From: Ochrobactrum teleogrylli
GTDB taxonomy: Bacteria > Pseudomonadota > Alphaproteobacteria > Rhizobiales > Rhizobiaceae
NCBI RefSeq assembly: GCF_006376685.1
Contig: NZ_VEWL01000012.1
Span: forward strand, 1 to 64,000
Reading direction: 5' to 3'
DNA length: 64,000 bases
Shown here: positions 17,271 through 34,627 of the stretch, piece by piece
Layout: every line of letters starts with the position of its first letter
Position numbering within the stretch: position 1 is the first letter of the stretch
Program-made: the position numbers and the translations under genes
Notes under the pieces: model-generated
Seen by the model: only the letters and a program-made list of their open reading frames with translations
Databases searched by the model: none
What the model was told of the DNA's origin: nothing

Positions 17271-17295
17271 GGAACATTATTCCAGCGAGACTGTT
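17271..17295 (+). promoter_or_regulatory. EcfG-type promoter, GGAAC-N17-GTT
   Basis: GGAAC at 17271-17275 and GTT at 17293-17295 with a 17-bp spacer match the alphaproteobacterial general-stress sigma consensus. It is 35 bp upstream of the Pro-rich secreted protein gene. Confidence 0.8.
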
Positions 17296-17329
17296 GATCT
17301 ACTCATCTTGCAGCGATGAGGATAGAGCA

Positions 17330-17611
17330 ATGAAACAGTTCATTATCGCGATAGCTTTTGCAGTCGCCTCGACTGCAGCGTCTGCGCAAACACCCGGCAT
17401 GCCGACCCAATCGGGCGGACAGGAACCTGAGGTGCCGGGAAACCCGCCGCCTTCGTCCAATCAGCAGCCTGCTGCACCAGAGAACGTACCCGTTCCTGAA
17501 AAAGCGCAACCACCAAAACATGATCGTAAAGACCGGATTGAGAAGCACACAAAGTGTGTGCCAGGTCAGGACGCGAAGAAATGCAGGGACGAACAGCGCG
17601 GTCGCAAGTAA
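17330..17611 (+). CDS. small secreted Pro-rich stress protein (unknown function)
   Basis: A 93-residue protein with a signal peptide (MKQFIIAIAFAVASTAASAQ) and a mature part that is Pro/Gln-rich and then Lys/Arg-rich with two Cys (TKCVPGQDAKKCRDE). I do not recognise a family. ATG 17330 is preceded by GAGG at a good distance and lies 35 bp behind an exact EcfG promoter, so general-stress expression is expected. It opens the stress island. Confidence 0.72.
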   Translation: MKQFIIAIAFAVASTAASAQTPGMPTQSGGQEPEVPGNPPPSSNQQPAAPENVPVPEKAQPPKHDRKDRIEKHTKCVPGQDAKKCRDEQRGRK

Positions 17612-17636
17612 TCGGCTATCTGTCGTCATTCCTTTT

Positions 17637-17661
17637 GGAACAATCTCCGTATCGCGCGGTT
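17637..17661 (+). promoter_or_regulatory. EcfG-type promoter, GGAAC-N17-GTT
   Basis: GGAAC at 17637-17641 and GTT at 17659-17661 lie about 85 bp upstream of the DUF3008-like gene. Confidence 0.78.
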
Positions 17662-17745
17662 TGGTAGGGCTATTTCGCTTCGCGTCTGTGCGTAGCGGAC
17701 CAAGCACTCCATTCCAATGAGCGCATTGATGCCGGAGGAAAAGAC

Positions 17746-17934
17746 ATGCCCGCAAAATCGAAAGCACAGCAACAGGCCGCCGGGGCGGCCCTCGCCGCAA
17801 AACGCGGAGACAAAGCCAAAAGCAGCTTGCAAGGCGCGTCCAAGCAAATGGAAAAGTCCATGAGCGAGACGGAACTCGAGAAAATGGCTTCCACCAAGCA
17901 AAAGGGAAAGCCGAAACACGCATCCAAATCCTGA
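17746..17934 (+). CDS. DUF3008-like small basic protein
   Basis: A 62-residue, lysine-rich, alanine-rich protein beginning MPAKSKAQQQAAGAALAAKR and ending STKQKGKPKH. This matches the DUF3008 pattern found in many proteobacteria. It is likely helical and cytosolic. The function is unknown. A GGAGG site lies 7 nt before ATG 17746 and an exact EcfG promoter lies upstream. It is transcribed alone. Confidence 0.8.
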   Translation: MPAKSKAQQQAAGAALAAKRGDKAKSSLQGASKQMEKSMSETELEKMASTKQKGKPKHASKS

Positions 17935-17964
17935 ACGTCAACCTGCAAGAATTATCGGGACGAT

Positions 17965-17989
17965 GAAACATTTAGCGGCCTGATGGGTT
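17965..17989 (+). promoter_or_regulatory. EcfG-like promoter variant, GAAAC-N17-GTT
   Basis: GAAAC (17965-17969) and GTT (17987-17989) keep the 17-bp spacer with one mismatch to GGAAC. It is placed about 64 bp before the YciE-like gene. The same variant appears at 25570 and 33051. Confidence 0.5.
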
Positions 17990-18052
17990 GGGCAGGCCTG
18001 TCGCTGTAACGGAGCGGCACCTACGTCTGAAACACCAAAGGGAGAGTTGGAA

Positions 18053-18556
18053 ATGGCCAGAACCAAGCAACGCACACTTGAGGATCTCTTCTACGATACG
18101 CTGAAAGATATCTACTATGCTGAGCGCAAAATATTGAAAGCGCTACCAAAAATGGCACGCGCCGCCGAAGACGAAAAGCTCAAGAATGCTTTCATGAAAC
18201 ACTATGAGCAGACGGAAGGGCATGTCGAACGCTTGCAGCAATGTTTCGAGATCCTCGGAAAGCGCGCGCAGGGCAAAACATGCGAAGCGATTGAGGGTAT
18301 CATTGCCGAGGGCGAAGAGATTATGGATGAATTTTCCGAGACCCCCGCTCTGGATGCAGGCCTGATCTCTGCCGCGCAGGCGGTTGAGCACTATGAAATA
18401 ACCCGTTACGGCACCCTGAAGCGTTGGGCGCAAACATTGGGCTACAATGATGTGGCCAAGCTGCTCGATCAAACCTTGCAGGAAGAAGGCCAGACCGACA
18501 AGGACCTGACCCAGCTTGCTGAAACGTCAGCCAATCGTCACGCCGAAGCTGCCTGA
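18053..18556 (+). CDS. YciE/DUF892 ferritin-like stress protein
   Basis: A 167-residue all-helical protein of the DUF892 family (TLEDLFYDTLKDIYYAERKI at the N-terminus). It has metal-ligand-like acids and His in KHYEQTEGHVERLQ and AVEHYEITRYGTL, typical of a dimeric four-helix ferritin-like fold. Family members are induced by osmotic and general stress; the biochemical role is unsettled. ATG 18053 follows GGAG at 8 nt. It is first in a three-gene operon with the DUF3182-like gene (5 bp downstream) and a hydrolase. Confidence 0.88.
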   Translation: MARTKQRTLEDLFYDTLKDIYYAERKILKALPKMARAAEDEKLKNAFMKHYEQTEGHVERLQQCFEILGKRAQGKTCEAIEGIIAEGEEIMDEFSETPALDAGLISAAQAVEHYEITRYGTLKRWAQTLGYNDVAKLLDQTLQEEGQTDKDLTQLAETSANRHAEAA

Positions 18557-18561
18557 CTTTG

Positions 18562-20431: not shown

Positions 20432-20456
20432 GGAACATCCTAGCCTCTCGCTGGTT
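20432..20456 (+). promoter_or_regulatory. EcfG-type promoter, GGAAC-N17-GTT
   Basis: GGAAC (20432-20436) and GTT (20454-20456) lie 33 bp upstream of the PepSY-like gene. The promoter probably serves the four-gene operon ending in the UdgX-type gene. Confidence 0.8.
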
Positions 20457-20488: not shown

Positions 20489-20806
20489 ATGAAAAGCTCA
20501 GTCCGATATCCAGCAGCCGCTGCTTTTGTTCTTATTGCCACCACTGCCTTCGCCCAAACGGCGCCCTCTGATGAGCCGCAAACCCCTGCGGTTACAACGC
20601 CAGGCGAGACCAATCCGAACGCACCCGTTCCGGGCAAGAACAGTTTTACCGAAGAGCAGGCAAAGCAGCGTTTCACCGACGCAGGTTACACCAACATCAT
20701 GAACCTCAAACTGGGTGAAGATGGCATCTGGCGCGCCGAAGCGGCGCGTGATGGACAGCCCTTTAAAGTTCAGCTCGACTTTCAGGGCAACGTAACCACG
20801 CAATAA
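20489..20806 (+). CDS. small periplasmic PepSY-like protein
   Basis: A 105-residue protein with a signal peptide (ending TTAFAQ), a Pro-rich linker, and a C-terminal domain of PepSY type (EEQAKQRFTDAGYTNIMNL then KVQLDFQGNV). It is likely periplasmic, possibly a protease modulator or ligand binder as proposed for PepSY domains. GGGAGG is well placed before ATG 20489. It is first of the operon behind an exact EcfG promoter. Confidence 0.8.
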   Translation: MKSSVRYPAAAAFVLIATTAFAQTAPSDEPQTPAVTTPGETNPNAPVPGKNSFTEEQAKQRFTDAGYTNIMNLKLGEDGIWRAEAARDGQPFKVQLDFQGNVTTQ

Positions 20807-20839
20807 TAACGCAGCCCAAAACGAACGAAGGAGATGACA

Positions 20840-21445
20840 ATGGTACATGTCACCGGTCTTTTCGATAATCATGACGAAGCGCTCGACGCTGTCCGGGCAC
20901 TGCAAGAAGCAGGTATTTCAGCGGACGATATCAGCCTCATATCCAATAACACCAATGGGCAATATGTCGATGACGCGGTCCAGGAAGATCAATCCACCAT
21001 CACGGGCGTGGAAACTGGCGCTGGTGTCGGAGCTGTTGCGGGTGGCGGAGCCGGACTGCTGACGGGGCTGGGTCTGCTTGCAATTCCCGGTGTCGGGCCC
21101 GTCGTTGCCGGCGGTTGGCTGACAGCCACCCTCGTCGGGCTGGTCGGTGGTGCAGCTGCAGGCGGCGTTGCAGGAGGCATTGTCGGAGCGCTGATGGAAA
21201 GCGGCATTCCGGAGGAAGAAGCGCAAGCCTATTCCGAAGCGATCCGCCGGGGCAGCACGCTGGTCGTCGTTCGGTGCGACGAAGAGGACCGTCAGAAAGT
21301 GGAAGCGATTTTCGACGAGTGGGCGCGTGTGGACATCCGGAAAAGGCGCAATGCTTATGTCGATGAAGGTTGGGAAGGATTCAGCGCTTCTGGCGCGCCT
21401 TACACATCCGACCAGATCGAGCAAGAACGCCGCCGATGGACATAA
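20840..21445 (+). CDS. general-stress-protein-17M-like glycine-zipper membrane protein
   Basis: A 201-residue protein. An N-terminal GSP17M-like domain (VTGLFDNHDEALDAVRAL, ADDISLISNN) is followed by a long Gly/Ala-rich glycine-zipper region (about 60-125) that may insert in membranes. A C-terminal repeat of the ferredoxin-like half (STLVVVRCDEEDRQKVEAIF) follows. Such proteins are stress-induced; the role is unknown. AAGGAG is 6 nt before ATG 20840, so I prefer it to the ATG at 20834. It is the second gene of the stress operon. Confidence 0.82.
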   Translation: MVHVTGLFDNHDEALDAVRALQEAGISADDISLISNNTNGQYVDDAVQEDQSTITGVETGAGVGAVAGGGAGLLTGLGLLAIPGVGPVVAGGWLTATLVGLVGGAAAGGVAGGIVGALMESGIPEEEAQAYSEAIRRGSTLVVVRCDEEDRQKVEAIFDEWARVDIRKRRNAYVDEGWEGFSASGAPYTSDQIEQERRRWT

Positions 21446-21466
21446 TTTAGAAGTGGAGCAGCCAGC

Positions 21467-21682
21467 ATGAAGGAGGTTACTCCCAAGGATGCCCGGCAAG
21501 GCCGGAAGGGAAGCCGGATTTTCCTGATACTTATTGTCAGTCTCGTGCTGGCGATGATTGTCTGGGCGGCGGTCGAATCTTACGGCCAGTTGACCCCCGG
21601 CAGGGGTTTCATGGATGACAACAGCAAGCCGCCCGCATCCACGGAATCGAAACCTCCTGCTTCGGCAACGGGCGCGCAATGA
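21467..21682 (+). CDS. small single-pass membrane protein
   Basis: A 71-residue protein with a basic N-terminus, one transmembrane helix (IFLILIVSLVLAMIVWAAV, about 18-36) and a Pro/Ser-rich tail. No family was recognised. GGAG precedes ATG 21467. Its stop overlaps the UdgX-type start by ATGA, so the two are translated together. Confidence 0.75.
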   Translation: MKEVTPKDARQGRKGSRIFLILIVSLVLAMIVWAAVESYGQLTPGRGFMDDNSKPPASTESKPPASATGAQ

Positions 21683-22293
21683 CACGTCCGGCAACAAAAA
21701 TTACGGAGGCTACCCTGGCCTCCGTCCGGCATGAAGCGCTTAGCTGCAGGCGTTGCGAGCTATACAAAAATGCGACGCAAACAGTCTTTGGCGAAGGGCC
21801 GGTGGGAGCCGGTATCATGTTCGTTGCAGAACAGCCGGGAGATAAGGAGGATCAAGGGGGGCGCCCCTTGATCGGTCCGGCAGGGCAGATGTTTGAACGC
21901 TGCCTCGCGGAAGTAGGCCTTTCACGCGATCGTTGCTATCTCACCAACGCGGTCAAACATTTCCGACATATTCAGCGGGGCAAGAAAAGGCTCCATCAGC
22001 GCCCTTCTACCAGCCATATTGAGGCGTGTCGCTGGTGGCTCGAGCAGGAGATCGAACTGGTCCACCCGCAACTTATTGTGGCGCTGGGAGCGACTGCCGC
22101 GCAATCCCTGTTGGGGAAGCCAGTTCGGATAGCGGACATGCGCGGGCGCTTGCTCGCTTACGGTGAGCATATCCAATTGCTCGTCACCATCCACCCTTCC
22201 TACCTGCTGCGGCTACGAAGCCGACCGGATTTCGAGAAAGAACGCGCCTTGTTCCTCAAAGAGCTCGCGATGGCTGCGGATTTTGCCAATTAA
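21679..22293 (+). CDS. udgX: UdgX-type uracil-DNA glycosylase
   Basis: A 204-residue UDG superfamily protein with the family-4-like motif FGEGPVGAGIMFVAEQPGD, the Fe-S cysteines C23 and C26 (CRRC) with C86 and C117 as likely partners, and motif B TIHPSYLL. The insert at about 100-110 reads RGKKRLHQRP. This corresponds to the KRRIH loop of UdgX, whose His covalently traps the uracil-site sugar; here it is H106 with KKRLH. It should bind and crosslink to uracil-containing DNA rather than turn over freely. It is the last gene of an EcfG-driven operon. Confidence 0.85.
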   Translation: MTRPATKITEATLASVRHEALSCRRCELYKNATQTVFGEGPVGAGIMFVAEQPGDKEDQGGRPLIGPAGQMFERCLAEVGLSRDRCYLTNAVKHFRHIQRGKKRLHQRPSTSHIEACRWWLEQEIELVHPQLIVALGATAAQSLLGKPVRIADMRGRLLAYGEHIQLLVTIHPSYLLRLRSRPDFEKERALFLKELAMAADFAN

Positions 22294-22336: not shown

Positions 22337-22361
22337 GGAACATCGGCGCGCCGGTCGGGTT
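22337..22361 (+). promoter_or_regulatory. EcfG-type promoter, GGAAC-N17-GTT
   Basis: GGAAC (22337-22341) and GTT (22359-22361) lie 64 bp upstream of the HEQHV-repeat protein gene. Readthrough could reach the sigma factor gene. Confidence 0.8.
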
Positions 22362-22424: not shown

Positions 22425-22613
22425 ATGGCCCAGAGTCATACACCAAGCCATACCCAGGGTGGCACCCACGAACAACATGTCAAGGCTGGTCAGCAAAGCC
22501 ATAAGAACGACGGCAAGCAGGCTAGCGGTGGCAATAATCAGCAGTCTTCCTCACGCGGCGGCTCACACGAGCAGCATGTGATGGCGGGGCAGCAAAGCCA
22601 CAAGAACTCGTGA
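22425..22613 (+). CDS. small hydrophilic repeat protein (HEQHVxAGQQSHKN twice)
   Basis: A 62-residue, highly hydrophilic protein. Its two halves repeat GG[TS]HEQHV[KM]AGQQSHKN, separated by a Gly/Asn/Ser linker. The composition resembles stress-induced KGG/hydrophilin-type proteins, which are disordered and protect against desiccation, but the repeat itself is not the KGG motif. Six histidines could bind metal. GGAAGGA precedes ATG 22425, behind an exact EcfG promoter. Confidence 0.75.
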   Translation: MAQSHTPSHTQGGTHEQHVKAGQQSHKNDGKQASGGNNQQSSSRGGSHEQHVMAGQQSHKNS

Positions 22614-22678: not shown

Positions 22679-23179
22679 ATGTCTTGCCCCCTCCATTCCG
22701 ACTACACGTTGGAACCGGACGAGCTTGTTGATATGATCCCGGCATTGCGCGCATTTGCGCGCACTTTTTATAGCCAACGGGAAGATGCCGAAGATCTCGT
22801 ACAGGAAACGCTCGTTAAAGCCCTGGCAAACCGGGAGAAATATATCCCTTATTCCCCGCTGAAATCCTGGCTTTTCACCATTATGCGCAACACATTTTGC
22901 ACCCGCATCCGGTTGCAAAAGCGAGAAGCGCCCGGTGTTGCCGAATGTATATCGCCGACCGCAAGCGTCGGTGCTTCACAGGAATATACGCTCGAAGCAC
23001 ATGATGTGCAGATCGCGCTTGAAACCTTGCCACAGAAATATCGCCGTGTGCTTTCGCTGGTGGTGCTGGAAGGTAAAAGCTATGAACGTACAGCTGAAAT
23101 TTGCGCTTGTTCGATTGGTACAGTGAAAAGCCGTCTGCATCGCGCCCGCCATAAGCTGCACGATATCGTCGATAGTTGA
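22679..23179 (+). CDS. ECF-family RNA polymerase sigma factor
   Basis: A 166-residue group IV sigma factor. Region 2 reads QREDAEDLVQETLVKALANREKY followed by SPLKSWLFTIMRNTF. Region 4 contains LPQKYRRVLSLVVLEG and the helix-turn-helix ACSIGTVKSRLHRARHKL. The overall pattern fits the EcfG-like group of alphaproteobacteria, making it a candidate paralogue of the general-stress sigma. No anti-sigma (NepR) or PhyR lies beside it. I use ATG 22679 with AAAGG 8 nt upstream. A 7-bp-arm palindrome CCGAACC-GT-GGTTCGG (22650-22665) sits just before the ribosome site. Confidence 0.85.
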   Translation: MSCPLHSDYTLEPDELVDMIPALRAFARTFYSQREDAEDLVQETLVKALANREKYIPYSPLKSWLFTIMRNTFCTRIRLQKREAPGVAECISPTASVGASQEYTLEAHDVQIALETLPQKYRRVLSLVVLEGKSYERTAEICACSIGTVKSRLHRARHKLHDIVDS

Positions 23180-23312
23180 TGAACGAAAAACTGTCGAACT
23201 GCCTATTCATAGCGTTTTGATTGAAGCGCAAAACCATCGCCCGATATCTTGCGTTTTGCCTTCGGACATGACTAACTAACTACTTGTTATGATAAGTCTA
23301 AATGATAGGGCC

Positions 23313-23681
23313 ATGTATTCATTTTCGGGCAAGCGCATTCTCGTTTTCGAAGACAGTTTTCTTCTTTCGGAGGAAACCGGTCGCAAACTTGGTGCGATTG
23401 GTGCTGTAATTCTTGGCCCCGTCAACACGACCGAGCAAGCGCTCCATTTTCTCCAAAACGAAGAAGTCGACGCCGCTATACTTGATGTGGCGCTGGAGCC
23501 GGCAACTGTATTGCCGCTTGTCGATGCGCTTGAAACGCGATCGACGCCGTTCATTTTCGCCCTGTCCATGAATCCGGCGAGTGATAACAAGGGCTTTACC
23601 GGCTTCGTGCTGAGTAATCGTGACAATGATCTGTCGGTCATTGCCGAAGCTCTTTTTCGTCGTCGCGGTCTGGAACAGTAG
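23313..23681 (+). CDS. stand-alone response regulator receiver domain
   Basis: A receiver-only protein of about 122 residues (KRILVFEDSFLLSEETGRKL, with the acceptor Asp in AILDVAL). The end of strand 5 lacks the usual Lys-Pro (FALSMNPASDNKG), so phosphotransfer output may be altered. No output domain is attached. Two starts are possible, ATG 23313 and ATG 23289, and neither has a good ribosome site. It lies between the sigma factor and a stress SDR and may link a histidine kinase to the stress response. Confidence 0.78.
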   Translation: MYSFSGKRILVFEDSFLLSEETGRKLGAIGAVILGPVNTTEQALHFLQNEEVDAAILDVALEPATVLPLVDALETRSTPFIFALSMNPASDNKGFTGFVLSNRDNDLSVIAEALFRRRGLEQ

Positions 23682-23718: not shown

Positions 23719-23743
23719 GGAACACCGGAGGATTCCGGTGGTT
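23719..23743 (+). promoter_or_regulatory. EcfG-type promoter, GGAAC-N17-GTT
   Basis: GGAAC (23719-23723) and GTT (23741-23743) lie 41 bp upstream of the stress SDR gene. Confidence 0.8.
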
Positions 23744-23784: not shown

Positions 23785-24645
23785 ATGAATAAACAATATC
23801 CCACCCCTCCCTTCGATACGCCGCATCAGGCCATGCCAGGCTTGACGGAAAAGATGAATCCCAAGCCTGATCATGGCGAAGCAAGCTACAAGGGTTCCGG
23901 CAAGTTGGAAGGACGAAAAGCCATCATCACGGGCGGCGATAGCGGGATCGGACGCGCCGTAGCTATCGCCTTTGCACGAGAAGGTGCTGATGTTCTGATC
24001 GCCTATCTTCAGGAAGAGGCCGATGCGCTTGAAACGCGGTCGCTGATCGAGGCAGAGGGCCGCAAGGCCGTTTTGATGAAATGCGATATTCAGCGTTCCC
24101 AGACCTGCCGGGAAATTGCAGAGCGCGCCGCCAAAGAATTTGGGCAGATCGATATCCTGGTCAATAATGCCGCGCATCAGGCCAGTTTTAACGCGTTGGA
24201 AGATATCAGCGATGAAGAATGGGATCTGACCTTCCGTGTGAACATCCATGCAATGTTCTATCTGACAAAGGCCGCCCTGCCTCATATGAAACCGGGATCC
24301 GCGATCATCAACACGGCTTCGATCAATTCGGACATGCCCAACCCGACCTTGCTGGCTTATGCAACGACAAAGGGCGCCATCCAGAATTTCACTGCTGGCC
24401 TTGCGCAATTGCTGGCTGAAAAAGGCATTCGCGCCAATGCGGTTGCGCCGGGGCCGGTCTGGACGCCCCTGATCCCTTCCACACTGCCGGAAGAGGCTGT
24501 TGCATCATTCGGCAAACAGACGCCGATGAAACGACCCGCCCAGCCTGCGGAACTTGCCTCCGCCTATGTCATGCTGGCAGATCCACTATCGAGCTATACG
24601 TCAGGCGCAACCATTGCAGTCACGGGCGGAAAGCCAATCCTCTAA
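23785..24645 (+). CDS. SDR oxidoreductase, YghA/YhdF (stress) type
   Basis: A 286-residue classical SDR with an N-terminal extension of about 40 residues (NPKPDHGEASYKGSGKLEGR) seen in the YghA/general-stress-protein-39-like group. The cofactor motif TGGDSGIG is at 49-56, NNAA follows, and the catalytic YATTK is present. The substrate is unknown, and quinone or aldehyde reduction under stress is plausible. GGAAGG lies about 10 nt before ATG 23785. It is followed by a stem-loop terminator. Confidence 0.88.
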   Translation: MNKQYPTPPFDTPHQAMPGLTEKMNPKPDHGEASYKGSGKLEGRKAIITGGDSGIGRAVAIAFAREGADVLIAYLQEEADALETRSLIEAEGRKAVLMKCDIQRSQTCREIAERAAKEFGQIDILVNNAAHQASFNALEDISDEEWDLTFRVNIHAMFYLTKAALPHMKPGSAIINTASINSDMPNPTLLAYATTKGAIQNFTAGLAQLLAEKGIRANAVAPGPVWTPLIPSTLPEEAVASFGKQTPMKRPAQPAELASAYVMLADPLSSYTSGATIAVTGGKPIL

Positions 24646-25016: not shown

Positions 25017-25041
25017 AACCGACAAGCGCAGTTTATGTTCC
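25017..25041 (-). promoter_or_regulatory. EcfG-type promoter, GGAAC-N17-GTT (minus strand)
   Basis: GGAAC is read at 25041-25037 and GTT at 25019-25017 with a 17-bp spacer. It drives the two coupled micro-genes. It lies immediately after the NUDIX stop codon. Confidence 0.8.
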
Positions 25042-25540: not shown

Positions 25541-25565
25541 AACCGCAAAAATACGCTTCTGTTCC
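25541..25565 (-). promoter_or_regulatory. EcfG-type promoter, GGAAC-N17-GTT (minus strand)
   Basis: GGAAC at 25565-25561 and GTT at 25543-25541, upstream of the NUDIX gene. Its position fixes the NUDIX start downstream of it. Confidence 0.8.
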
Positions 25566-25569: not shown

Positions 25570-25594
25570 GAAACAATAACGCCATTTCATGGTT
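25570..25594 (+). promoter_or_regulatory. EcfG-like promoter variant, GAAAC-N17-GTT
   Basis: GAAAC (25570-25574) and GTT (25592-25594) lie 34 bp upstream of the Cys-rich protein. It is back to back with the exact promoter on the minus strand, only 4 bp away. Confidence 0.55.
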
Positions 25595-26550: not shown

Positions 26551-26575
26551 AACCAGATGCGGGAGAAATAGTTCC
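26551..26575 (-). promoter_or_regulatory. EcfG-type promoter, GGAAC-N17-GTT (minus strand)
   Basis: GGAAC at 26575-26571 and GTT at 26553-26551, 31 bp upstream of the lipocalin start and just after the topoisomerase stop. Confidence 0.8.
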
Positions 26576-27650: not shown

Positions 27651-27676
27651 AACCACCCAAACGCCTAACGAGTTCC
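27651..27676 (-). promoter_or_regulatory. EcfG-type promoter, GGAAC-N18-GTT (minus strand)
   Basis: GGAAC at 27676-27672 and GTT at 27653-27651 with an 18-bp spacer. It serves the topoisomerase gene and lies back to back with the ku promoter. Confidence 0.65.
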
Positions 27677-27693: not shown

Positions 27694-27718
27694 GGAACCT
27701 TCCGGCCTTCAACTGGTT
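27694..27718 (+). promoter_or_regulatory. EcfG-type promoter, GGAAC-N17-GTT
   Basis: GGAAC (27694-27698) and GTT (27716-27718) lie 28 bp before the GTG start of the stand-alone ku gene. Confidence 0.8.
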
Positions 27719-27745: not shown

Positions 27746-28549
27746 GTGCCGCACGCATTCTGGAAAGGCTACCTGAAACTGTCGCTCGTCACTTGTGCCG
27801 TGGAGTTGATGCCAGCGACCAGCGACAGCGAGAAAGTGCGCTTTCACACGCTCAACGCCAAAACAGGCAATCGGGTCATCAGCCGCTATGTCGATTCAGT
27901 GACGCACAAGCCTGTGCGCGATCAGGACGAGATCAAGGGCTTTGAGAAAGCGGAAGGCGACTATATCCTCCTTGAAGATGATGAGCTGGAAGCGGTGGCC
28001 CTCGAAAGCACACGCACCATCGATATCGATAAATTCGTAGAACGCGATAGCATCGGTTGGATCTGGTACGACAAGCCCCATTATCTCTCACCCGCTGACA
28101 AGGTTGGGCAGGAAGCCTTTGCCGTCATTCGGGAAGCGATGGACAAAAGCGGCGTCTGCGGCTTGGCGCGACTGGTGATGTACCGGCGCGAACGAGCCGT
28201 TCTTCTGGAGCCACGTGGACCAGGTATTGTCTTATGGACCTTGCATTTCGGCGATGAAGTGCGAAAACCTGAGGATTATTTTTCAAATATCGGGGGCGAA
28301 AAGCCCGATAAAAAGCTGTTTTCCATGGTTCGTAAGCTGATCAAGGATAAGACGGAAGACTGGAATCCGGATTTGCTGAAGGACCCGGTTCAGAGGAATC
28401 TGAAATCGATGATCGCCGCCAAGAAGAAGAAAACAAAAGCACCCGCAAAGGCTAAATCCAGCGCCACGCCCCCGCCGACCAGCGGCAATGTTATCAACAT
28501 CATGGATGCTTTGCGCAAAAGTCTCGCCAACGAGAAAAAACAGCGCTAA
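27746..28549 (+). CDS. ku: Ku protein (NHEJ), stand-alone copy
   Basis: A 267-residue bacterial Ku that should dimerise and encircle broken DNA ends to recruit LigD. It starts AFWKGYLKLSLVTCAVELMP and shows FHTLNAKTGNRVISRYVDS and YYLSP-like YLSPADKVGQEAFAV. It ends in a Lys-rich tail (AAKKKKTKAPAKAK) and the C-terminal NIMDALRKSL. The start is GTG 27746 with AGGGG 8 nt upstream. It is convergent with ligD (22 bp between stops) and transcribed alone from an EcfG promoter. It is a paralogue of the ku at 31067. Confidence 0.92.
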   Translation: MPHAFWKGYLKLSLVTCAVELMPATSDSEKVRFHTLNAKTGNRVISRYVDSVTHKPVRDQDEIKGFEKAEGDYILLEDDELEAVALESTRTIDIDKFVERDSIGWIWYDKPHYLSPADKVGQEAFAVIREAMDKSGVCGLARLVMYRRERAVLLEPRGPGIVLWTLHFGDEVRKPEDYFSNIGGEKPDKKLFSMVRKLIKDKTEDWNPDLLKDPVQRNLKSMIAAKKKKTKAPAKAKSSATPPPTSGNVINIMDALRKSLANEKKQR

Positions 28550-28571: not shown

Positions 28572-31067
28572 TTACCGCTTCGGTAAAGGTTTTGCCGCTT
28601 TGCTGAAATCCTCCCAAGGGTCGTTCTTTAAAGCCGCAAGCCGCGTCGGCGTATTCAATATGGTGAAATGGGTCGGGCCGATTGCCGGGCTCACTTCGTT
28701 CCATGCGAGCGGCATGGAAACCGCTGCCCCCGGACGAGCGCGAGGCGAATATGGCGCAACCGCAGTCATACCGCGTTGATTGCGCAAGTAATCAATGAGG
28801 ATTTTGCCTTTGCGTTTGGCTTTGGAAATAGTCGATACGTAGCGATCAGGACTATCCGCCGCCATCTCGTCGGCGATTGCCTTGGTGAAAGCCTTCAGAC
28901 TTTCCCAGTCGGCCTTCGGTTTTAACGGCACAACGACATGCAGCCCCTTGCCGCCCGACGTTTTTACAAAGGTGGTGAGGCCGTGTTTCTCAAGCCGCTC
29001 CTTTGTTTCAAAAGCGCCTTCGACGACGCGCTCCCAGGCGACACCGTCTCCGGGATCAAGATCCATCGTCAATATATCTGGCAGTTCCCAGTTTTTAAGG
29101 GTCGATCCCCATGGATGTATTTCCAGCGTGGCGGCCTGCACCAAACCGATCAGACCGTCGAAATCCTTGATTGCTATGTACGGTTCTTCATCCTTCTCAG
29201 ACGGATCATCAACCTCAAAAATATGTTCGTTCGGACCCTTCCACGCGTGTTTCTGGAAGAAGTGCTGGCCGTCGATGCCTGTGGGACAGCGCAGCAAAGC
29301 CAGTGGCCGATTGATGATAAACGGCTCAATGCGCGGCCAGACCTCGGCGTAATAATCCGCCAATCCCTGTTTGGTGATACCCTCTTTCGGCCAGTATACA
29401 CGGTCCGGGTGGGTGAGCTTCACATCGGCTTCTTCGGAAGCTGCTTTTTCGGGCCGGGCTGGCATGGCACTTTTCTCCAAGATGACCTCCTTCGCGGCCT
29501 TGTCGTCCCGCAGGCCGCGGAAAGACGCGTGGCGCAATCTCCTGTCTGCGGTCCATGCGCGAAACTCGATCTCTGCGACGAGCTGCGGTTTGACGAATAT
29601 CGCGCCGCGCTTTTCTTCAGCTGTCAGCGTCGTGGCAAAGGGGCTTTTCTCCTGACGCATCGCGTTGAGCTTTTTATAAAGATCTTTGGCCAGTTTGACC
29701 GAAAATCCGGTTCCGACCCTCCCGACCGAAACGAGACCTCTCTTTTCCTGAACGCCCAGCAACAACGAACCGATTGCATCGCGCGTTGCGCTGGAAGGTA
29801 CAAAGCCCGCAATGACAAATTCCTGTCGTCCGATGCATTTCGATTTGCGCCAGTCTTTGCTGCGTCCCGAACTATAAAGACCCTCGCTCAGCTTCGAGAC
29901 GATGCCTTCCAGCCCCAGACCGCAGGCATTGTTCAACACAGCTTCCCCGTCGGCATCAAAAGCCTCGCTATAGCGTAATGTGGCCATCGAAGGGGAGATA
30001 AGCTTTGCCAGCAGCGCCTTGCGCTCGACCAACGGCACCTGACGCAGATCGTTGCCATTAAAATAGAGGAGATCAAAGAGATAATAGGCGAAGCGATCCG
30101 AACGCCCCTCGCTCAAATCGCTTTGCAACGCGGAAAAATCCGACAAGCCCGCGCCGCTTTCCACCACAATTTCGCCGTCCAAAATGGCATTGTCGACGCC
30201 GGTCGCCAGAATATCTTTTGTGATCGCTTGGCCGAATTTTTCGGTCCAATCCAGCCCACTGCGCGAATAAAGCACGACATTGCCGTTTAAAACGTGCGCT
30301 TGAATACGATAGCCATCAAACTTGATTTCGTGAATCCAGCGGCTCCCTTCTGGAGCAGCGGATACCAACGTCGCCAATTGCGGTTCGATGAACTGCGGCA
30401 TCGCAGCCTTTTTGGCGAGCTTCGGCAGAGGTTGCGCCTTTTCTTTGGCAACGCGGGTTTTAGCGATAGGCCCGGTTTTGGATGACCAGCCCGGCGCTTC
30501 ATCTTCCACCTCGGCAATAACCCGCCCGGTTTTTACCGATTGCGGTTCTTCCTCGAGAATATCCGGATCGTTTGCCTCCCGCGCAAACTCATCCTCCCCC
30601 TTTATGAGCAGCCAGTTTTCGCGCTTTTCACCGGGCTTTCCATGCATTCGAACGAGATGCCAACGGCCCTTGAGCTTTTCGCCATTCAGTTCGAATTCCA
30701 TGTGCCCCTTATTGTACTGTTTGTGTGGATCGCCGATTGGCTTCCACTGCCCATTGTCCCAGACAATGACTGTGCCGCCGCCATATTCGCCCTTGGGGAT
30801 TGTGCCTTCAAAACCGGCATATTCGAGAGGATGATCCTCCACATGGACAGCCAGACGCTTTTCACCGGGCACCAGACTTGGTCCGCGCGTGACCGCCCAG
30901 CTTTTCAACACGCCGTCCATTTCGAGCCTGAAATCATAGTGCAACCGGCGCGCGTCGTGTTTCTGCACCACAAAAAGGTCGCCCTTGCTCCGCCCAGCCT
31001 TGCCGCGCGGCTCTTTCGTCAGGCTGAAGTCGCGTTTCTTGTGATAAGTTTCAAGCGGCTGTCCCAT
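28572..31067 (-). CDS. ligD: ATP-dependent DNA ligase LigD (phosphoesterase-ligase-polymerase)
   Basis: An 831-residue multifunctional NHEJ enzyme. The 3'-phosphoesterase domain is at about 30-160 (RLHYDFRLEMDG, EDHPLEY). The ligase domain follows with the adenylated K249 in EIKFDGYRI and an OB fold. The primase-like polymerase domain is C-terminal (LTHPDRVYWPKEGITK, GQHFFQKHAWKG, MDLDPGDG). The order PE-LIG-POL resembles Pseudomonas LigD. Its start overlaps the ku stop (TAATG), so ku and ligD form a coupled operon. It is full length. Confidence 0.95.
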   Translation of the reverse strand: MGQPLETYHKKRDFSLTKEPRGKAGRSKGDLFVVQKHDARRLHYDFRLEMDGVLKSWAVTRGPSLVPGEKRLAVHVEDHPLEYAGFEGTIPKGEYGGGTVIVWDNGQWKPIGDPHKQYNKGHMEFELNGEKLKGRWHLVRMHGKPGEKRENWLLIKGEDEFAREANDPDILEEEPQSVKTGRVIAEVEDEAPGWSSKTGPIAKTRVAKEKAQPLPKLAKKAAMPQFIEPQLATLVSAAPEGSRWIHEIKFDGYRIQAHVLNGNVVLYSRSGLDWTEKFGQAITKDILATGVDNAILDGEIVVESGAGLSDFSALQSDLSEGRSDRFAYYLFDLLYFNGNDLRQVPLVERKALLAKLISPSMATLRYSEAFDADGEAVLNNACGLGLEGIVSKLSEGLYSSGRSKDWRKSKCIGRQEFVIAGFVPSSATRDAIGSLLLGVQEKRGLVSVGRVGTGFSVKLAKDLYKKLNAMRQEKSPFATTLTAEEKRGAIFVKPQLVAEIEFRAWTADRRLRHASFRGLRDDKAAKEVILEKSAMPARPEKAASEEADVKLTHPDRVYWPKEGITKQGLADYYAEVWPRIEPFIINRPLALLRCPTGIDGQHFFQKHAWKGPNEHIFEVDDPSEKDEEPYIAIKDFDGLIGLVQAATLEIHPWGSTLKNWELPDILTMDLDPGDGVAWERVVEGAFETKERLEKHGLTTFVKTSGGKGLHVVVPLKPKADWESLKAFTKAIADEMAADSPDRYVSTISKAKRKGKILIDYLRNQRGMTAVAPYSPRARPGAAVSMPLAWNEVSPAIGPTHFTILNTPTRLAALKNDPWEDFSKAAKPLPKR

Positions 31068-31897
31068 TATCCAGCCTTTCGGGGCTTCGCTTTGCTGGTC
31101 GCGGTTTTCGCCGCTTTTTTCTTGGGCGCGCTCATGGCTGCGCTCTTACGCAAGGCTTCCTTCAGATCGATCACGTCAGCAGTCTTTGGAGCGGCAGGCT
31201 TTTTGAGCGGCTTGCCTTCGATCTTCGCTTTTATCAGCTCGGCAAGCGCCGCGTCATAACGGTCGTCGAAGCTTGAGGGATCGAAACGGCCCATCTTGGT
31301 GTCGATGATATGCTTGGCCAGATCGAGCATTTCCCGGTCGAATTTGAATGCTTCGAGATTTGAAAAAGCTTCGTTCGCAGAACGAACTTCATAATCAAAA
31401 TTAAGCGTCGTTGCGATCAATCCATCGCCCTCCGCGCGGATAAGAATTTTGCGCGCGCGGCGGAAAAGCACCGCCTCTGCGACCGCCGCAACGTTTTCGG
31501 CTTTTATACCGTCGCTAAAAAGCGAGAAGACCTCGTCATCATCAACAGGCGCCAGATAATAGGGGCGGTCCAGATAGACATCATCGATATCACCACATTT
31601 GACAAAATGAGTGACGTTCAACGTTTTGTTGCTGTCTGGGATGGTCGACTGGATTTCATCATCATCGAAACTGACATAACGACCAGAAGAGATTTCATAT
31701 CCCTTGATCTGCTCTTCGCGCGGAACAGGTTTGCCTGTATCGCTGTCGACAAATTCGCGGCTGAGACGATTGCCCGTTTTGCGATTGACCAGATGGAACG
31801 AAACCCGCTCGGAGGTTGACACCGCCGTATAAAGACCGACAGGCATCAAAAGCTGCTCGACTTTCAACTGGCCTTTCCAGTTTGCGCGGATAGCCAT
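31067..31897 (-). CDS. ku: Ku protein (NHEJ), ligD-linked copy
   Basis: A 276-residue Ku starting MAIRANWKGQLKVEQLLMPV, with SFHLVNRKTGNRLSREFVDS and YYLAPVDDDEVFSLF, and a Lys-rich tail. ATG 31897 has GAGG at 5-6 nt. A longer frame to 32038 has no ribosome site and runs over another small gene. Being in an operon with ligD, it is the obvious LigD partner. An EcfG-type promoter with an 18-bp spacer lies 38 bp upstream. Confidence 0.93.
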   Translation of the reverse strand: MAIRANWKGQLKVEQLLMPVGLYTAVSTSERVSFHLVNRKTGNRLSREFVDSDTGKPVPREEQIKGYEISSGRYVSFDDDEIQSTIPDSNKTLNVTHFVKCGDIDDVYLDRPYYLAPVDDDEVFSLFSDGIKAENVAAVAEAVLFRRARKILIRAEGDGLIATTLNFDYEVRSANEAFSNLEAFKFDREMLDLAKHIIDTKMGRFDPSSFDDRYDAALAELIKAKIEGKPLKKPAAPKTADVIDLKEALRKSAAMSAPKKKAAKTATSKAKPRKAG

Positions 31898-31934: not shown

Positions 31935-31960
31935 AACTCGCAGAACCGCGAACTTGTTCC
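31935..31960 (-). promoter_or_regulatory. EcfG-type promoter, GGAAC-N18-GTT (minus strand)
   Basis: GGAAC at 31960-31956 and GTT at 31937-31935 with an 18-bp spacer, placed for the ku-ligD operon. Confidence 0.6.
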
Positions 31961-32388: not shown

Positions 32389-32409
32389 CGCCATAAACCT
32401 CCCTGGCCC

Positions 32410-32434
32410 AACGATCTCGTAGAGCAAATGTTCC
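32410..32434 (-). promoter_or_regulatory. EcfG-type promoter, GGAAC-N17-GTT (minus strand)
   Basis: GGAAC at 32434-32430 and GTT at 32412-32410, about 22 bp before the membrane micro-gene start. Confidence 0.8.
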
Positions 32435-32509
32435 GGCGACCTCTTGCTGATTTCTTCCGGAGCCTCGGAATTCGACAACGCCGTTTTACTTTATAGACTT
32501 CGCCACGAA

Positions 32510-32534
32510 GGAACCGATCCCGGTCAAATAAGTT
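32510..32534 (+). promoter_or_regulatory. EcfG-type promoter, GGAAC-N17-GTT
   Basis: GGAAC (32510-32514) and GTT (32532-32534) lie 49 bp upstream of the low-affinity iron permease-like gene. Confidence 0.8.
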
Positions 32535-32582
32535 TCAATGGAGCGCTGTGTCGGCTTCCACTATCCTGGAGGAGGAATTGCC

Positions 32583-33008
32583 ATGGAAAAGTTCTTCACT
32601 CGTCTCTCCCAGACCATCGCTGAACTGGCAGGGACATCCTATGCGTTCGGTGTTGCTTTGGGTTTCATTCTCATATGGGCCTGTTCGGGTCCGATATTTG
32701 GCTTTTCCGACACCTGGCAGCTTGTCATCAACACGGCCACAACAATCATCACTTTCCTGATGGTTTTTTTGATCCAGAATTCGCAAAATCGCGATTCCAC
32801 GGCGGTGGAGGCGAAACTGGACGAAGTCATTCGTTGTCTGGAAGGGGCGCGTTCACAGCTTATCGGTATTGAGCACCTCACCGAAAGCGAAGTCGAAGCG
32901 ATACGGACGGCAATTGAGGACGAAAACGGAGATCAAACTACCAAAGTGAATGTTGAGGAATTGCTGCGTAATGCGACCCGAAGAGCAAAACAATACCGCC
33001 CGAAATAG
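32583..33008 (+). CDS. low-affinity iron permease family protein
   Basis: A 141-residue protein with two transmembrane helices (YAFGVALGFILIWACSGP and VINTATTIITFLMVFLI) followed by the IQNSQNRDSTAVEAKLDE motif and a coiled cytosolic tail. This is the PF04120-type Iron_permease family. Despite the name, bacterial members are stress proteins of unproven transport function. ATG 32583 follows GGAGG. Exact EcfG promoter upstream. It is transcribed alone. Confidence 0.88.
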   Translation: MEKFFTRLSQTIAELAGTSYAFGVALGFILIWACSGPIFGFSDTWQLVINTATTIITFLMVFLIQNSQNRDSTAVEAKLDEVIRCLEGARSQLIGIEHLTESEVEAIRTAIEDENGDQTTKVNVEELLRNATRRAKQYRPK

Positions 33009-33050
33009 ACTGCGTTCCCGCAAGCCCTTCGACAGAAACCGATTTGGTTC

Positions 33051-33075
33051 GAAACATATGTGGTTTTGAGAAGTT
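33051..33075 (+). promoter_or_regulatory. EcfG-like promoter variant, GAAAC-N17-GTT
   Basis: GAAAC (33051-33055) and GTT (33073-33075), 30 bp before the small hydrophilic protein gene. Confidence 0.5.
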
Positions 33076-33104
33076 AGACCTCCCCAATTAATGGAGGCTG
33101 AACA

Positions 33105-33323
33105 ATGGCAAATCCTTCACCGAAGCCCGGAACGACCGATCAAAAACCAAAATGGGAAGGTCCACCGGAAAACCGACCGCGCGGTTATGACCCGGCGGAA
33201 GATAATCCCGACAAACAACGCGATGCAGCGGGACACAGCCTGTCAGATCCCGACCGCAGAAATCTCTCCGATGCTTTAAGCGAGCCAAAGTCCAACACGA
33301 CGAAGAAAAAAGGAGATGCGTAA
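33105..33323 (+). CDS. small hydrophilic protein, unknown function
   Basis: A 72-residue, Pro/Asp/Lys-rich protein (TTDQKPKWEGPPENRPRGYD, DPDRRNLSDALSEPKS) without hydrophobic core, so it is likely disordered, like other small stress proteins here. GGAGG lies 7 nt before ATG 33105. Its stop overlaps the flavoprotein start (TAATG), so the two genes are coupled. No family was recognised. Confidence 0.72.
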   Translation: MANPSPKPGTTDQKPKWEGPPENRPRGYDPAEDNPDKQRDAAGHSLSDPDRRNLSDALSEPKSNTTKKKGDA

Positions 33324-33960
33324 TGACGACGACTTCTCCAATCCCCATCCCTCTCAAGGCGCTCGCGCTGAATGCGACATTGAAAGGCAAGGCGGATCAT
33401 ACGCCGTCCTCGACCGATGAACTGTTACGCTATCTGGATTCTCATCTCATTCCATATGGGGTAGAGACCGAACATCTGCGATTGAGCGCATTCAATATCG
33501 AGCCGGGTGTGACATCCCGCGAAAGCGACGAGGATGAATGGCCCATGGTGCGGCAGAAGATTTTAGATTCGGACATTTTTATTCTCGGCACCCCGATCTG
33601 GCTCGGACAGCCATCCAGCATCTGTAAGCGTGTTTTGGAACGCATGGATGCCTTTCTTTCCGAAACAGACGACAAGAACCGGATGCCTTCCTATGACTGT
33701 GTTGCTGCGGTGGTTGTGGTTGGCAATGAGGATGGAGCTCATCACGTATCCGCCGAGCTATATCAGGCTTTGAACGATGTTGGTTTTACCTTGCCAGCGA
33801 ATGCCGTCACCTATTGGGTGGCGAGGCGATGCAATCAACCAACTTCGTCGATCTCAACACAATTCCCGAAGTCGTTGTTTCAACGACGAAAATGGTCGCC
33901 GCAAATTGTGTCCATCTTGCCCATTTATTGAAGAACCACCCCTATCCAGGTAGCCATTAA
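33323..33960 (+). pseudogene. NAD(P)H-dependent flavodoxin-like oxidoreductase, frameshifted near its 3' end
   Basis: The first roughly 165 residues are a flavodoxin-fold FMN reductase (LKALALNATLKG, then SDIFILGTPIWLGQPSS as the flavin loop, AAVVVVGNEDGAHH). After TYWV at about 33816-33823 the reading frame shifts. In the plus-one alternative frame, assuming one missing G in GGGTGG-CGAGG, the protein continues GEAMQSTNFVDLNTIPEV, then STTKMVAANCVHLAHLLK, and stops at 33960, matching the usual C-terminus of the family. As written, the frame ends at 33931 with an unrelated tail. This is either a sequencing slip or a recent inactivating deletion. Confidence 0.8.
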
Positions 33961-34208
33961 AACATCATGGGCTGGCTTGGGTTGTCCGGTTCCGGCGAAG
34001 GTGGCCCGGGATCGGGAAGCGGCGGTATTTGTTCCGGTTCGTCAGGACCAATGGGATCTCCATCGGGCTGTGGTATGGTCTCCGGCGGCTGCTGGGGGAC
34101 TTTTTCGGGCTCAGGCGATGGTATCTCCGGGGGATCGCCCGATTGCAATTCCAGAGCGTTCTTCTTGAATTGGGCAGCGTTTGCGGTATCGGGTTGCAGC
34201 GTTTTCAT
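33957..34208 (-). CDS. proline-rich acidic small protein
   Basis: An 83-residue protein whose second half is a Pro/Glu/Asp-rich repeat (PEIPSPEPEKVPQQPPETIP, PLPDPGPPSPEPDNP), certainly extended or disordered. Good ribosome site (GGAAGGA) before ATG 34208 and an exact EcfG promoter 32 bp upstream. Its stop codon overlaps the restored stop of the convergent flavoprotein gene (33957-33960), which supports that gene's original length. The function is unknown. Confidence 0.7.
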   Translation of the reverse strand: MKTLQPDTANAAQFKKNALELQSGDPPEIPSPEPEKVPQQPPETIPQPDGDPIGPDEPEQIPPLPDPGPPSPEPDNPSQPMMF

Positions 34209-34239
34209 CGGATTTCCTTCCTCTTTTCCAGAAGGGCCG

Positions 34240-34264
34240 AACCTGTCGCAGAGGCGATTGTTCC
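34240..34264 (-). promoter_or_regulatory. EcfG-type promoter, GGAAC-N17-GTT (minus strand)
   Basis: GGAAC at 34264-34260 and GTT at 34242-34240, upstream of the Pro-rich gene. Confidence 0.8.
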
Positions 34265-34273
34265 GCCAGCTGT

Positions 34274-34561
34274 TTAACGTTTCTCCGGCTTTCCGTAAGC
34301 ACTGCGCAATTCAGTTTTCGCCAGCTCCAATATTCGTTTGCGCTCTTTCGGCAGCTTTGTGCCAGCACGATTGATATAAAAAGTCAGCATCGACATCGCC
34401 GATTGGAATGGAGTGGTTTTGCGCTTTCGACTGTGATCGGCCGAACGTTTCAGGGAGAGCGCGATCTTCTTCGGATCATTATCTTCGAAAATATGCGGTT
34501 CCAGTGTCAGCGCATCGCTATGCTCGGTCACTTCTGCCGACCACTTTTTGGACTTGGTCAT
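34274..34561 (-). CDS. DUF3175 family protein
   Basis: A 95-residue protein matching DUF3175: KWSAEVTEHSDALTLEPHIF, DPKKIALSLKRSADHSRKRK, and the strongly conserved SAMSMLTFYINRAGTKL. It is cytosolic, basic and helical; the function is unknown. GAGG before ATG 34561 and an exact EcfG promoter 42 bp upstream make it another single-gene stress unit. Confidence 0.88.
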   Translation of the reverse strand: MTKSKKWSAEVTEHSDALTLEPHIFEDNDPKKIALSLKRSADHSRKRKTTPFQSAMSMLTFYINRAGTKLPKERKRILELAKTELRSAYGKPEKR

Positions 34562-34602
34562 GCCTGCACCTCGATGATTTTAAGGGAACTGTTTGCCCTC
34601 AA

Positions 34603-34627
34603 AACCTATTACCATGGCAGATGTTCC
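34603..34627 (-). promoter_or_regulatory. EcfG-type promoter, GGAAC-N17-GTT (minus strand)
   Basis: GGAAC at 34627-34623 and GTT at 34605-34603, upstream of the DUF3175 gene. Confidence 0.8.

What the first reader, a model, noticed from the sequence alone, without database searches (positions are those of the whole stretch)
17271..34627. Dense array of EcfG-type stress promoters on both strands
Ten exact GGAAC-N17-GTT elements (17271, 17637, 20432, 22337, 23719, 27694, 32510 plus; 25017, 25541, 26551, 32410, 34240, 34603 minus include the exact set), two with N18 (27651, 31935) and three GAAAC-N17-GTT variants (17965, 25570, 33051) each lie 20-85 bp before a start codon, in a 17-kb stretch. 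The fixed 17-bp spacer and their position at nearly every operon argue against chance. The stretch reads as a self-contained general-stress island with a local ECF sigma gene.
Basis: partly seen in the sequence, partly recalled or inferred. Interest (0 to 1): 0.75.

Follow-up and report, generated by a model that had tools for sequence, protein, structure and literature searches.

The report
Stress-gene island with own promoter dialect
A 17-kb stretch of a Brucella/Ochrobactrum-group genome gathers DNA-repair and stress-protection genes, most operons carrying the same kind of on-switch, around a spare copy of the master stress regulator; the switch is mostly spelled one letter differently from that of the main stress locus, which suggests that the spare regulator has its own set of genes.

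Summary
In detail: 13 exact GGAAC-N17-GTT sites lie in 17271-34627 against 1 in the rest of the window (0.6 expected in the island from the genome rate). Genome-wide the motif is not in excess (190; reversed pattern 186), so the packing is what matters. Sites are conserved before leading genes (DUF892 19 of 19 orthologs, PepSY 17 of 17) and absent before operon-internal ones (RR 0 of 19, orf71 0 of 16); three sites are weakly conserved. The local sigma is a non-canonical EcfG; the phyR-nepR-ecfG locus is on another contig, so the island is not self-contained. Two or more N17 sites lie near non-canonical EcfG genes in 22 of 23 other alphaproteobacterial loci. New: the base before GTT. Canonical loci have C (46 of 52 distinct sites, G 1); Brucella/Ochrobactrum islands have G (99 of 180, C 17). 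In the DUF892 family, island-type copies have C in 0 of 14, other copies in 18 of 20. I infer that SigL-type sigmas read a GGTT dialect, a candidate for the undetermined promoter pattern of non-canonical EcfG. That link is inferred; recognition by canonical EcfG1 with tuned strength is the main rival.

The parts
17271..17295 (+). EcfG-type promoter (GGAAC-N17, TGTT) of the 93-aa ORF 17330-17611
   Evidence: 1 of 2 orthologs keep a site
17637..17661 (+). EcfG-type site (GGTT), 84 bp before the 62-aa lysine-rich ORF 17746-17934; weakly conserved
   Evidence: 3 of 13 orthologs within 160 bp, 5 of 13 within 350 bp
17965..17989 (+). GAAAC variant promoter (GGTT) of the DUF892 gene
   Evidence: motif (GGAAC or GAAAC) kept before 19 of 19 orthologs
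18053..18556 (+). DUF892 protein; leads a run with DUF3182 (18562-19647) and an alpha/beta hydrolase (19637-20365)
   Evidence: Pfam
20432..20456 (+). EcfG-type promoter (GGTT) of the PepSY-YflT-orf71-UDG run
   Evidence: 17 of 17 PepSY orthologs keep it; orf71 0 of 16, UDG 0 of 10
20489..22293 (+). PepSY protein, YflT-like protein, orf71, uracil-DNA glycosylase family protein
22337..22361 (+). EcfG-type promoter (GGTT) of the sigma operon
   Evidence: 16 of 16 orthologs of the leading small ORF keep it
22425..22613 (+). 62-aa hydrophilic repeat protein, first gene of the sigma operon
22679..23179 (+). SigL: non-canonical EcfG (ECF sigma factor), 166 aa
   Evidence: Pfam Sigma70_r2 and r4_2; tree
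23289..23681 (+). single-domain receiver-like protein (RR), FATGUY-like but degenerate, downstream of SigL
   Evidence: weak NCBIfam PRK13435 match, below cut-off; found downstream of SigL in 19 of 19 fetched stretches with SigL; alignment A2
23719..23743 (+). EcfG-type promoter (GGTT) of the SDR gene
   Evidence: 9 of 15 orthologs, control spacers 3 of 15
23785..24645 (+). short-chain dehydrogenase
   Evidence: Pfam
25017..25041 (-). EcfG-type promoter (GGTT) of a 55-aa ORF 24805-24972
   Evidence: 4 of 4 orthologs
25541..25565 (-). EcfG-type promoter (GGTT) of the NUDIX gene 25049-25510
   Evidence: 3 of 5 orthologs
25570..25594 (+). GAAAC variant promoter (GGTT), divergent from 25541, of the DUF326 gene 25629-25967
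   Evidence: 3 of 3 orthologs, with TGTT
26551..26575 (-). EcfG-type promoter (GGTT) of the lipocalin gene 25975-26520
   Evidence: 3 of 3 orthologs; Pfam
27651..27676 (-). EcfG-type promoter with N18 spacer (GGTT) of the topoisomerase IB gene 26581-27606
   Evidence: 9 of 9 orthologs, 8 of them with N18
27694..27718 (+). EcfG-type promoter (GGTT) of Ku gene A
   Evidence: 7 of 9 orthologs
27746..28549 (+). Ku (non-homologous end joining), copy A
   Evidence: TIGR02772 above cut-off
28572..31067 (-). DNA ligase D, downstream of KuB
   Evidence: 0 of 5 orthologs with a site of their own
31067..31897 (-). Ku, copy B, first gene of the KuB-LigD run
31935..31960 (-). EcfG-type promoter with N18 spacer (AGTT) of the KuB-LigD run
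   Evidence: 3 of 9 orthologs within 160 bp, all N18; 9 of 9 within 350 bp, control spacers 3 of 9; N18 also before KuB in L039, L040, L041, L048
32410..32434 (-). EcfG-type site (CGTT) before a 59-aa ORF 32215-32394; weakly conserved
   Evidence: 1 of 6 orthologs within 160 bp
32510..32534 (+). EcfG-type promoter (AGTT) of the low-affinity iron permease family gene 32583-33008
   Evidence: 1 of 1 ortholog
33051..33075 (+). GAAAC variant promoter (AGTT) of orf72 (33105-33323) and FMN reductase (33323-33931)
   Evidence: 8 of 9 orf72 orthologs; FMN reductase itself 0 of 7
34240..34264 (-). EcfG-type site (GGTT) before an 83-aa ORF 33957-34208; not conserved in close orthologs
   Evidence: 0 of 8 orthologs
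34603..34627 (-). EcfG-type promoter (GGTT) of the DUF3175 gene 34274-34561
   Evidence: 9 of 9 orthologs, but control spacers also match in 7 of 9; Pfam

Best explanation
This is an accessory general-stress-response island. Most operons in it (NHEJ repair, DUF892, NUDIX, UDG family, topoisomerase IB, SDR, lipocalin, small hydrophilic proteins) have their own EcfG-type promoter, and the island carries its own non-canonical EcfG sigma factor, here called SigL, in an operon headed by the same kind of promoter. Shown by sequence: the promoters are conserved and correctly placed, and their -10 element is mostly GGTT where canonical EcfG promoters have CGTT. Inferred: stress activates PhyR, PhyR takes NepR off EcfG1, and EcfG1 (weakly) or SigL itself switches on the SigL operon; SigL then prefers the GGTT promoters around it and in the island of its sister paralogue on contig C6. 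The result would be a second, partly insulated layer of the stress response with positive feedback. The adjacent degenerate receiver may modulate it.
For: Clustering. Conservation before leading genes and absence before internal genes. Sites followed within 5-130 bp by an ORF with a Shine-Dalgarno-like sequence: 333 of 425, against 69 of 183 for control spacers. Around non-canonical EcfG in other alphas: 22 of 23 loci have two or more N17 sites (18 of 23 have four or more), 133 in all against 16 reversed. SigL and the C6 paralogue are sisters (98/92) apart from the canonical EcfG1 group. -10 dialect: G 114, C 15 of 199 in 22 stretches; canonical loci C 46, G 1 of 52; DUF892 island-type C 0 of 14, other copies 18 of 20. 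GGTT sites per Mb 10.9 in 22 SigL-bearing genomes, 7.8 in 13 without, with equal reversed controls.
Against: No transcription data. Nearness to SigL does not prove that SigL reads the sites. In the window's own canonical locus the three sites have C, T and A. Sphingopyxis in vitro work used a GGTT promoter as a template for both its EcfG factors and found CGTT best among the boxes it mutated, GGTT not being among those in the passages I saw (PMC7083833); Methylobacterium EcfG1 targets have C/GGTT (PMC4814048, passages). In other alphas non-canonical islands are mixed (G 54, C 52). Two DUF892 copies with CGTT lie near a non-canonical EcfG: L233 about 2.6 kb from sigL in G193, and L200 in G170. 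CGTT is also slightly commoner in SigL-bearing genomes (11.7 against 10.7 per Mb, p 0.05). Genomes are related, so counts are not independent; by gene family the G:C contrast is weaker (29:7 against 33:31, p 0.005).
Confidence: 0.6

Rival explanations
1. The canonical EcfG1 reads all island promoters; GGTT is only a weaker or tuned -10 box, and SigL is a minor or redundant amplifier.
For: EcfG regulons in other species include GGTT boxes (PMC4814048, PMC7083833, passages). SigU of Caulobacter is described as redundant with SigT (PMC8103513, passage).
Against: Strong split by locus and paralogue: canonical C 46, G 1 against islands G 99, C 17; summed over genomes, GGTT exceeds its reversed control only in those with SigL (ratio 1.23 against 0.88); reversed-pattern counts have more CGTT-type than GGTT-type matches, so the islands invert the background.
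Confidence: 0.28
2. SigL is held by its own unidentified signal (for example through the degenerate receiver) and works apart from PhyR-NepR; the island is a separate stress regulon, not a layer of the general stress response.
For: No NepR near it and only one NepR match in the genome. R. etli EcfG2 is partly independent of PhyR and EcfG1, and no NepR-EcfG2 interaction was seen in Caulobacter and Sphingomonas (PMC3892343). The receiver-like gene follows SigL in 19 of 19 stretches.
Against: The -35 GGAAC and the spacer are those of canonical EcfG promoters, so some cross-talk is likely; no output of the receiver is known.
Confidence: 0.2
3. The cluster is a chance or compositional effect.
For: Genome-wide the motif is no commoner than its reversed control.
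Against: P about 2e-13 at the genome rate, spacer-specific, conserved in position in relatives.
Confidence: 0.01

Closest known systems
Alphaproteobacterial general stress response: PhyR-NepR-EcfG (ECF15) and its GGAAC-N16-CGTT promoters
   Same: -35 GGAAC, same spacing, a sigma of the EcfG kind, stress-type targets
   Different: -10 mostly GGTT with C rare; the sigma has no NepR or PhyR beside it; targets are packed around the sigma gene
Non-canonical EcfG2 of Rhizobium etli (PMC3892343)
   Same: Accessory EcfG paralogue with no anti-sigma gene nearby; its own promoter responds to it in the reporter test
   Different: No promoter motif was found for it in that study; here a motif and a gene set are proposed. 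Orthology was not tested
EcfG paralogues of Sphingopyxis granuli (PMC7083833) and Methylobacterium extorquens (PMC4814048)
   Same: Several EcfG paralogues, GGAAC-type promoters, GGTT occurs as a -10 variant
   Different: There the paralogues are reported to share one kind of promoter; here the -10 differs by locus
FATGUY single-domain response regulators MrrA and SdrG (PMC5964349)
   Same: Short receiver in a stress-response setting, PFxFA element, conserved Asp
   Different: Thr and Lys of the receiver replaced (FAL or FAF, Ser); in a run with a sigma gene

Membership tests
ECF sigma factor | Sigma70 region 2 and region 4_2 domains, short protein | tested here: met
   PF04542 and PF08281 above cut-off, 166-189 aa
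EcfG (ECF15) | Groups with EcfG proteins rather than other ECF groups | tested here: met
   Tree: same large group as canonical EcfG and alphaproteobacterial paralogues, apart from actinobacterial and some other ECFs; no official ECF15 model was used, the root is a midpoint and some long branches are unsure
Canonical EcfG | Gene next to nepR and phyR | tested here: not met
   Only NepR match in the genome is at G000:C2:152893; PhyR, NepR and EcfG domains there
Canonical EcfG | Targets with -10 CGTT | tested here: inconclusive
   Neighbouring sites have CGTT in 1 of 13 and GGTT in 10 of 13, but that they are SigL's targets is inferred
Canonical EcfG | Bound by NepR | not testable with these tools
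   needs binding data
Non-canonical EcfG2 subgroup (R. etli type) | Orthologous to R. etli PF00052 | not tested
   the CFN42 protein was not compared
General-stress-response promoter | GGAAC, 17-18 bp to GTT, upstream of stress-type genes, conserved | tested here: met
General-stress-response promoter | -10 CGTT | tested here: not met
   C in 15 of 199 N17 sites of 22 genus stretches
General-stress-response promoter | Transcription start just downstream, dependent on an EcfG | not testable with these tools
   needs RNA data
FATGUY response regulator | PFxFATG(G/Y) motif | tested here: not met
   PF[IV]FAL in 17 and FAF in 1 of 18 aligned sequences; Asp58 and Ser101 invariant
Bacterial NHEJ | Ku plus multi-domain LigD | tested here: met
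   TIGR02772 twice, TIGR02776 above cut-off

The most novel reading that the evidence does not exclude
Non-canonical EcfG sigma factors of the Brucella/Ochrobactrum group read a private -10 dialect (GGTT, with CGTT avoided), so that one genome runs two general-stress regulons that share a -35 but differ by one base in the -10. Gene families carry the dialect of the layer they belong to, and islands of gene-plus-promoter units around spare EcfG genes are a way in which alphaproteobacteria extend their stress response. This would supply the missing promoter pattern of non-canonical EcfG, at least for this group.
Probability: 0.48. Interest if true: 0.72.

Novelty: new variant of a known kind. 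Interest (0 to 1): 0.57.

Why it matters
A 2021 review states that the promoter pattern of non-canonical EcfG is yet to be determined (PMC8103513, passage read). The islands give a concrete one-base prediction for it, with natural promoter pairs to test, and point to how an accessory stress layer, end-joining DNA repair included, is added to a genome and kept partly apart from the core response.

Tried and rejected
Chance clustering was rejected. 'Self-contained island' was rejected. The idea that one loop change in SigL-type and C6-type sigmas (GT to [YF][SAG] at SigL residues 58-59) explains the dialect was left open: the change separates them from canonical EcfG and from all 23 other non-canonical sigmas aligned, but Szabonella (L059) has G in 5 of 6 ORF-supported sites with an ordinary GT. 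Genome-wide motif counts alone could not define a regulon. A background sample of the own genome was asked for, failed on region size and was not repeated. No structure of the receiver-like protein could be had because the machine was busy, so its fold rests on a weak NCBIfam match and on motif comparison.

Limits of the counts. The 23 'non-canonical' loci are those alphaproteobacterial loci (L039-L052, L054, L055, L057-L061, L063, L065) whose sigma scored best against SigL; the three genus relatives L036-L038 are apart, and L071 (3 N17 sites), which the tree puts near L050 and L051, was left out. L053 and L073 are counted with the seven EcfG1-like loci by score, but the tree puts them, with weak support (87/69), in the other half. 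Canonical sites were kept if an ORF with a Shine-Dalgarno-like sequence follows; the 180 genus island sites only needed an ORF. Many canonical sites are the same few promoters in related species. L187 and L188 are near-identical genomes. 'Island-type' DUF892 means at least 84% identity, not location: L193 is from a genome without SigL and L234 is not on the contig of sigL. 5 of 39 DUF892 rows (4 genes) had no site and are left out of the 14 and the 20; one of these genes (L201 and L207) is of the island type. Two of the 22 genomes counted as SigL-bearing (G166, G171) have partial matches; G170, with a different non-canonical EcfG (52% identity), is counted among the 13 without. Part of the GGTT excess is the islands themselves. 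The clusters of short proteins may mix families: it puts 14 loci with a site in the family of the 17746 ORF, but searches find only 3 and 5 of 13 orthologs with one.
Full report
1. The observation. Shuffles that keep dinucleotides give 1.5 on average. In the island spacer 17 stands alone (13, against 0-2 for each other spacer from 10 to 25); in the flanks nothing does. The whole genome (4.76 Mb, 43 contigs) holds 190 sites, against 186 for the same pattern read backwards, so the motif as such is not evidence of function; its packing here is. At the genome rate 0.62 sites are expected in the island.

2. Genes. Pfam and NCBIfam name DUF892, DUF3182, alpha/beta hydrolase, PepSY, YflT, UDG family, ECF sigma, SDR, NUDIX, DUF326, lipocalin, topoisomerase IB, two Ku proteins, LigD, iron permease family, FMN reductase and DUF3175. 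That EcfG-type regulators control Ku genes in Sinorhizobium is recalled; one search did not list that work.

3. The promoters are real by comparison. In 20 stretches from relatives and one stretch of contig C6, leading genes keep the motif within 160 bp: DUF892 19 of 19, PepSY 17 of 17, the 62-aa ORF of the sigma operon 16 of 16, topoisomerase IB 9 of 9, orf72 8 of 9, KuA 7 of 9, SDR 9 of 15, NUDIX 3 of 5, lipocalin 3 of 3, DUF326 3 of 3. Genes inside operons do not have it: RR 0 of 19, orf71 0 of 16, hydrolase 0 of 10, UDG 0 of 10, FMN reductase 0 of 7, LigD 0 of 5; DUF3182 has 1 of 11 and YflT 3 of 18. KuB has it in 3 of 9 within 160 bp and 9 of 9 within 350 bp (control spacers 3 of 9). Weak cases are 17637, 32410 and 34240; for 34603 control spacers match in 7 of 9 against 9 of 9. 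In more distant genera, at roughly 45-70% protein identity, Ku, DUF892, UDG, SDR and the sigma gene often have the motif, with N18 common in L039-L041 and L048. Over 426,949 bases in 22 stretches of the genus the N17 spacer counts 199, the others from 12 to 22 count 7-29. Of 425 N17 or N18 sites, 333 are followed within 5-130 bp by an ORF with a Shine-Dalgarno-like sequence, against 69 of 183 sites with control spacers.

4. The sigma factor. SigL (22679-23179) is 42% identical to the EcfG beside NepR on contig C2 and 51% to a third EcfG on contig C6. The tree puts SigL and the C6 type together (98/92), apart from canonical EcfG. The own genome has one NepR match, in a locus with PhyR, EcfG and a HisKA_2 kinase. 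SigL-type genes occur in 22 of 35 genus genomes, two of them as partial matches; named relatives are Ochrobactrum sp. RH2CCR150, Brucella pituitosa and Falsochrobactrum shanghaiense. In ten relatives a C6-type paralogue lies within about 3-16 kb of a SigL gene, and in two more on the same contig 81 and 190 kb away. In the own genome it is on C6, in a second cluster of 7 sites with an HWE kinase, a long catalase, a methylpurine-DNA glycosylase and two Crp-type regulators. SigL is preceded by the small hydrophilic ORF and followed by a receiver-like gene in 19 of 19 stretches. That protein keeps the Asp but has FAL (17 of 18) or FAF (1 of 18) instead of FAT and Ser instead of Lys.

5. The architecture recurs. 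Among 23 loci of other Alphaproteobacteria with a non-canonical EcfG, 22 have two or more N17 sites and 18 four or more in up to about 20 kb, 133 in all against 16 reversed; loci of ECF genes from outside the Alphaproteobacteria have 0-2. Genome rates in 15 genomes, three of them of the window's genus, are 0.02-0.05 per kb.

6. The dialect. The base before GTT is G in 10 of 13 window sites and C in 1. In the genus stretches it is G 114, T 37, A 33, C 15 of 199 N17 sites. In 30 canonical phyR-nepR loci it is C 46, A 3, T 2, G 1 of 52 distinct sites; the window's own canonical locus has one each of C, T and A. In seven loci whose sigma scores closer to EcfG1 it is C 26, T 4, G 2, A 1; in the 23 other non-canonical loci G 54, C 52, T 24, A 15. 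In the passage of the Sinorhizobium table, seven of eight RpoE2-responsive sites have CGTT; that of rpoE5 has no GTT. By gene family the genus islands have G 29, C 7 of 56 and the other alphas G 33, C 31 of 87 (p 0.005). For DUF892, island-type copies have G 9, A 4, T 1 (14 sites) and other copies C 18, G 1, A 1 (20 sites); five of 39 rows had no site. In five of six genomes with sites before both kinds the island-type copy lacks C and the other has it; G187 is the exception (A and G). L233 and L200 have CGTT although they lie near a non-canonical EcfG. GGTT sites are 10.9 per Mb in 22 genomes with SigL and 7.8 in 13 without (p 2e-5), with reversed controls of 8.84 and 8.86; CGTT is 11.7 and 10.7 (p 0.05). 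These genomes are related, so the p-values are only guides.

7. Reading. Promoters and dialect are shown by sequence. That SigL reads them is inferred from location, co-occurrence and the split between paralogues. The main rival is that canonical EcfG1 reads both forms and that GGTT only tunes strength; Sphingopyxis and Methylobacterium data allow it. R. etli EcfG2 is a precedent for a separate regulon, but no motif could be found for it, and a review of 2021 calls the pattern yet to be determined. The searches (one search found no paper) listed no title on EcfG promoter islands or on a GGTT preference of non-canonical EcfG; only open-licence papers are held and most listed papers were not opened. 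Papers: PMC3892343 parts 2 and 3 of 6 and passages; PMC7083833, PMC4814048, PMC8103513, PMC6180224 and PMC5964349 passages only.

8. Verdict. A known kind of promoter in an unusual packing, with a one-letter difference, testable at once, that may mark a second layer of the general stress response. On checking, confidence was lowered slightly (0.62 to 0.60; novel case 0.50 to 0.48; interest 0.58 to 0.57) because the own canonical locus has C in one of three sites and because L200 joins L233 as an exception.

Noticed in passing
L003 (G000:C6:30000-48000), sites 5637-14390: Second cluster of 7 GGAAC-N17-GTT sites (6 with GGTT, 1 with TGTT) around the sister EcfG paralogue, with HWE kinase, BON protein, isochorismatase family, two Crp-type regulators, methylpurine-DNA glycosylase and a long catalase.
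   Followed up: partly
L174/L175, L177, L179, L181, L187, L188, L189, L190: In these relatives the two non-canonical EcfG genes lie within about 3-16 kb of each other; in the window's genome they are on separate contigs.
   Followed up: partly
L163 (G171) and L164 (G166): SigL matches are partial there, and the G166 match has a stop inside, so the sigma gene may be decaying; GGTT sites remain around the G166 copy.
   Followed up: no
L039, L040, L041, L048: These Rhizobium/Neorhizobium/Pseudorhizobium islands hold more sites with an 18-bp than with a 17-bp spacer (6 and 5, 8 and 6, 8 and 5, 10 and 3).
   Followed up: no
L176, minus strand, and 14 loci outside the genus: A large family that reads like hybrid histidine kinases (by eye, no HMM run) is among the commonest directly behind these promoters, so the islands may also feed sensors into the stress response.
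   Followed up: no
37991-40150: RuBisCO-large-chain-like protein (38711-40150) with a GntR-FCD regulator gene on the other strand just before it, next to the island.
   Followed up: no
G016:C5:169039, G194:C4:149730, G166:C1:1339367, G168:C34:133709: One nearly identical GGAAC-N17-GGTT site recurs in genomes with and without SigL; its gene was not looked at.
   Followed up: no
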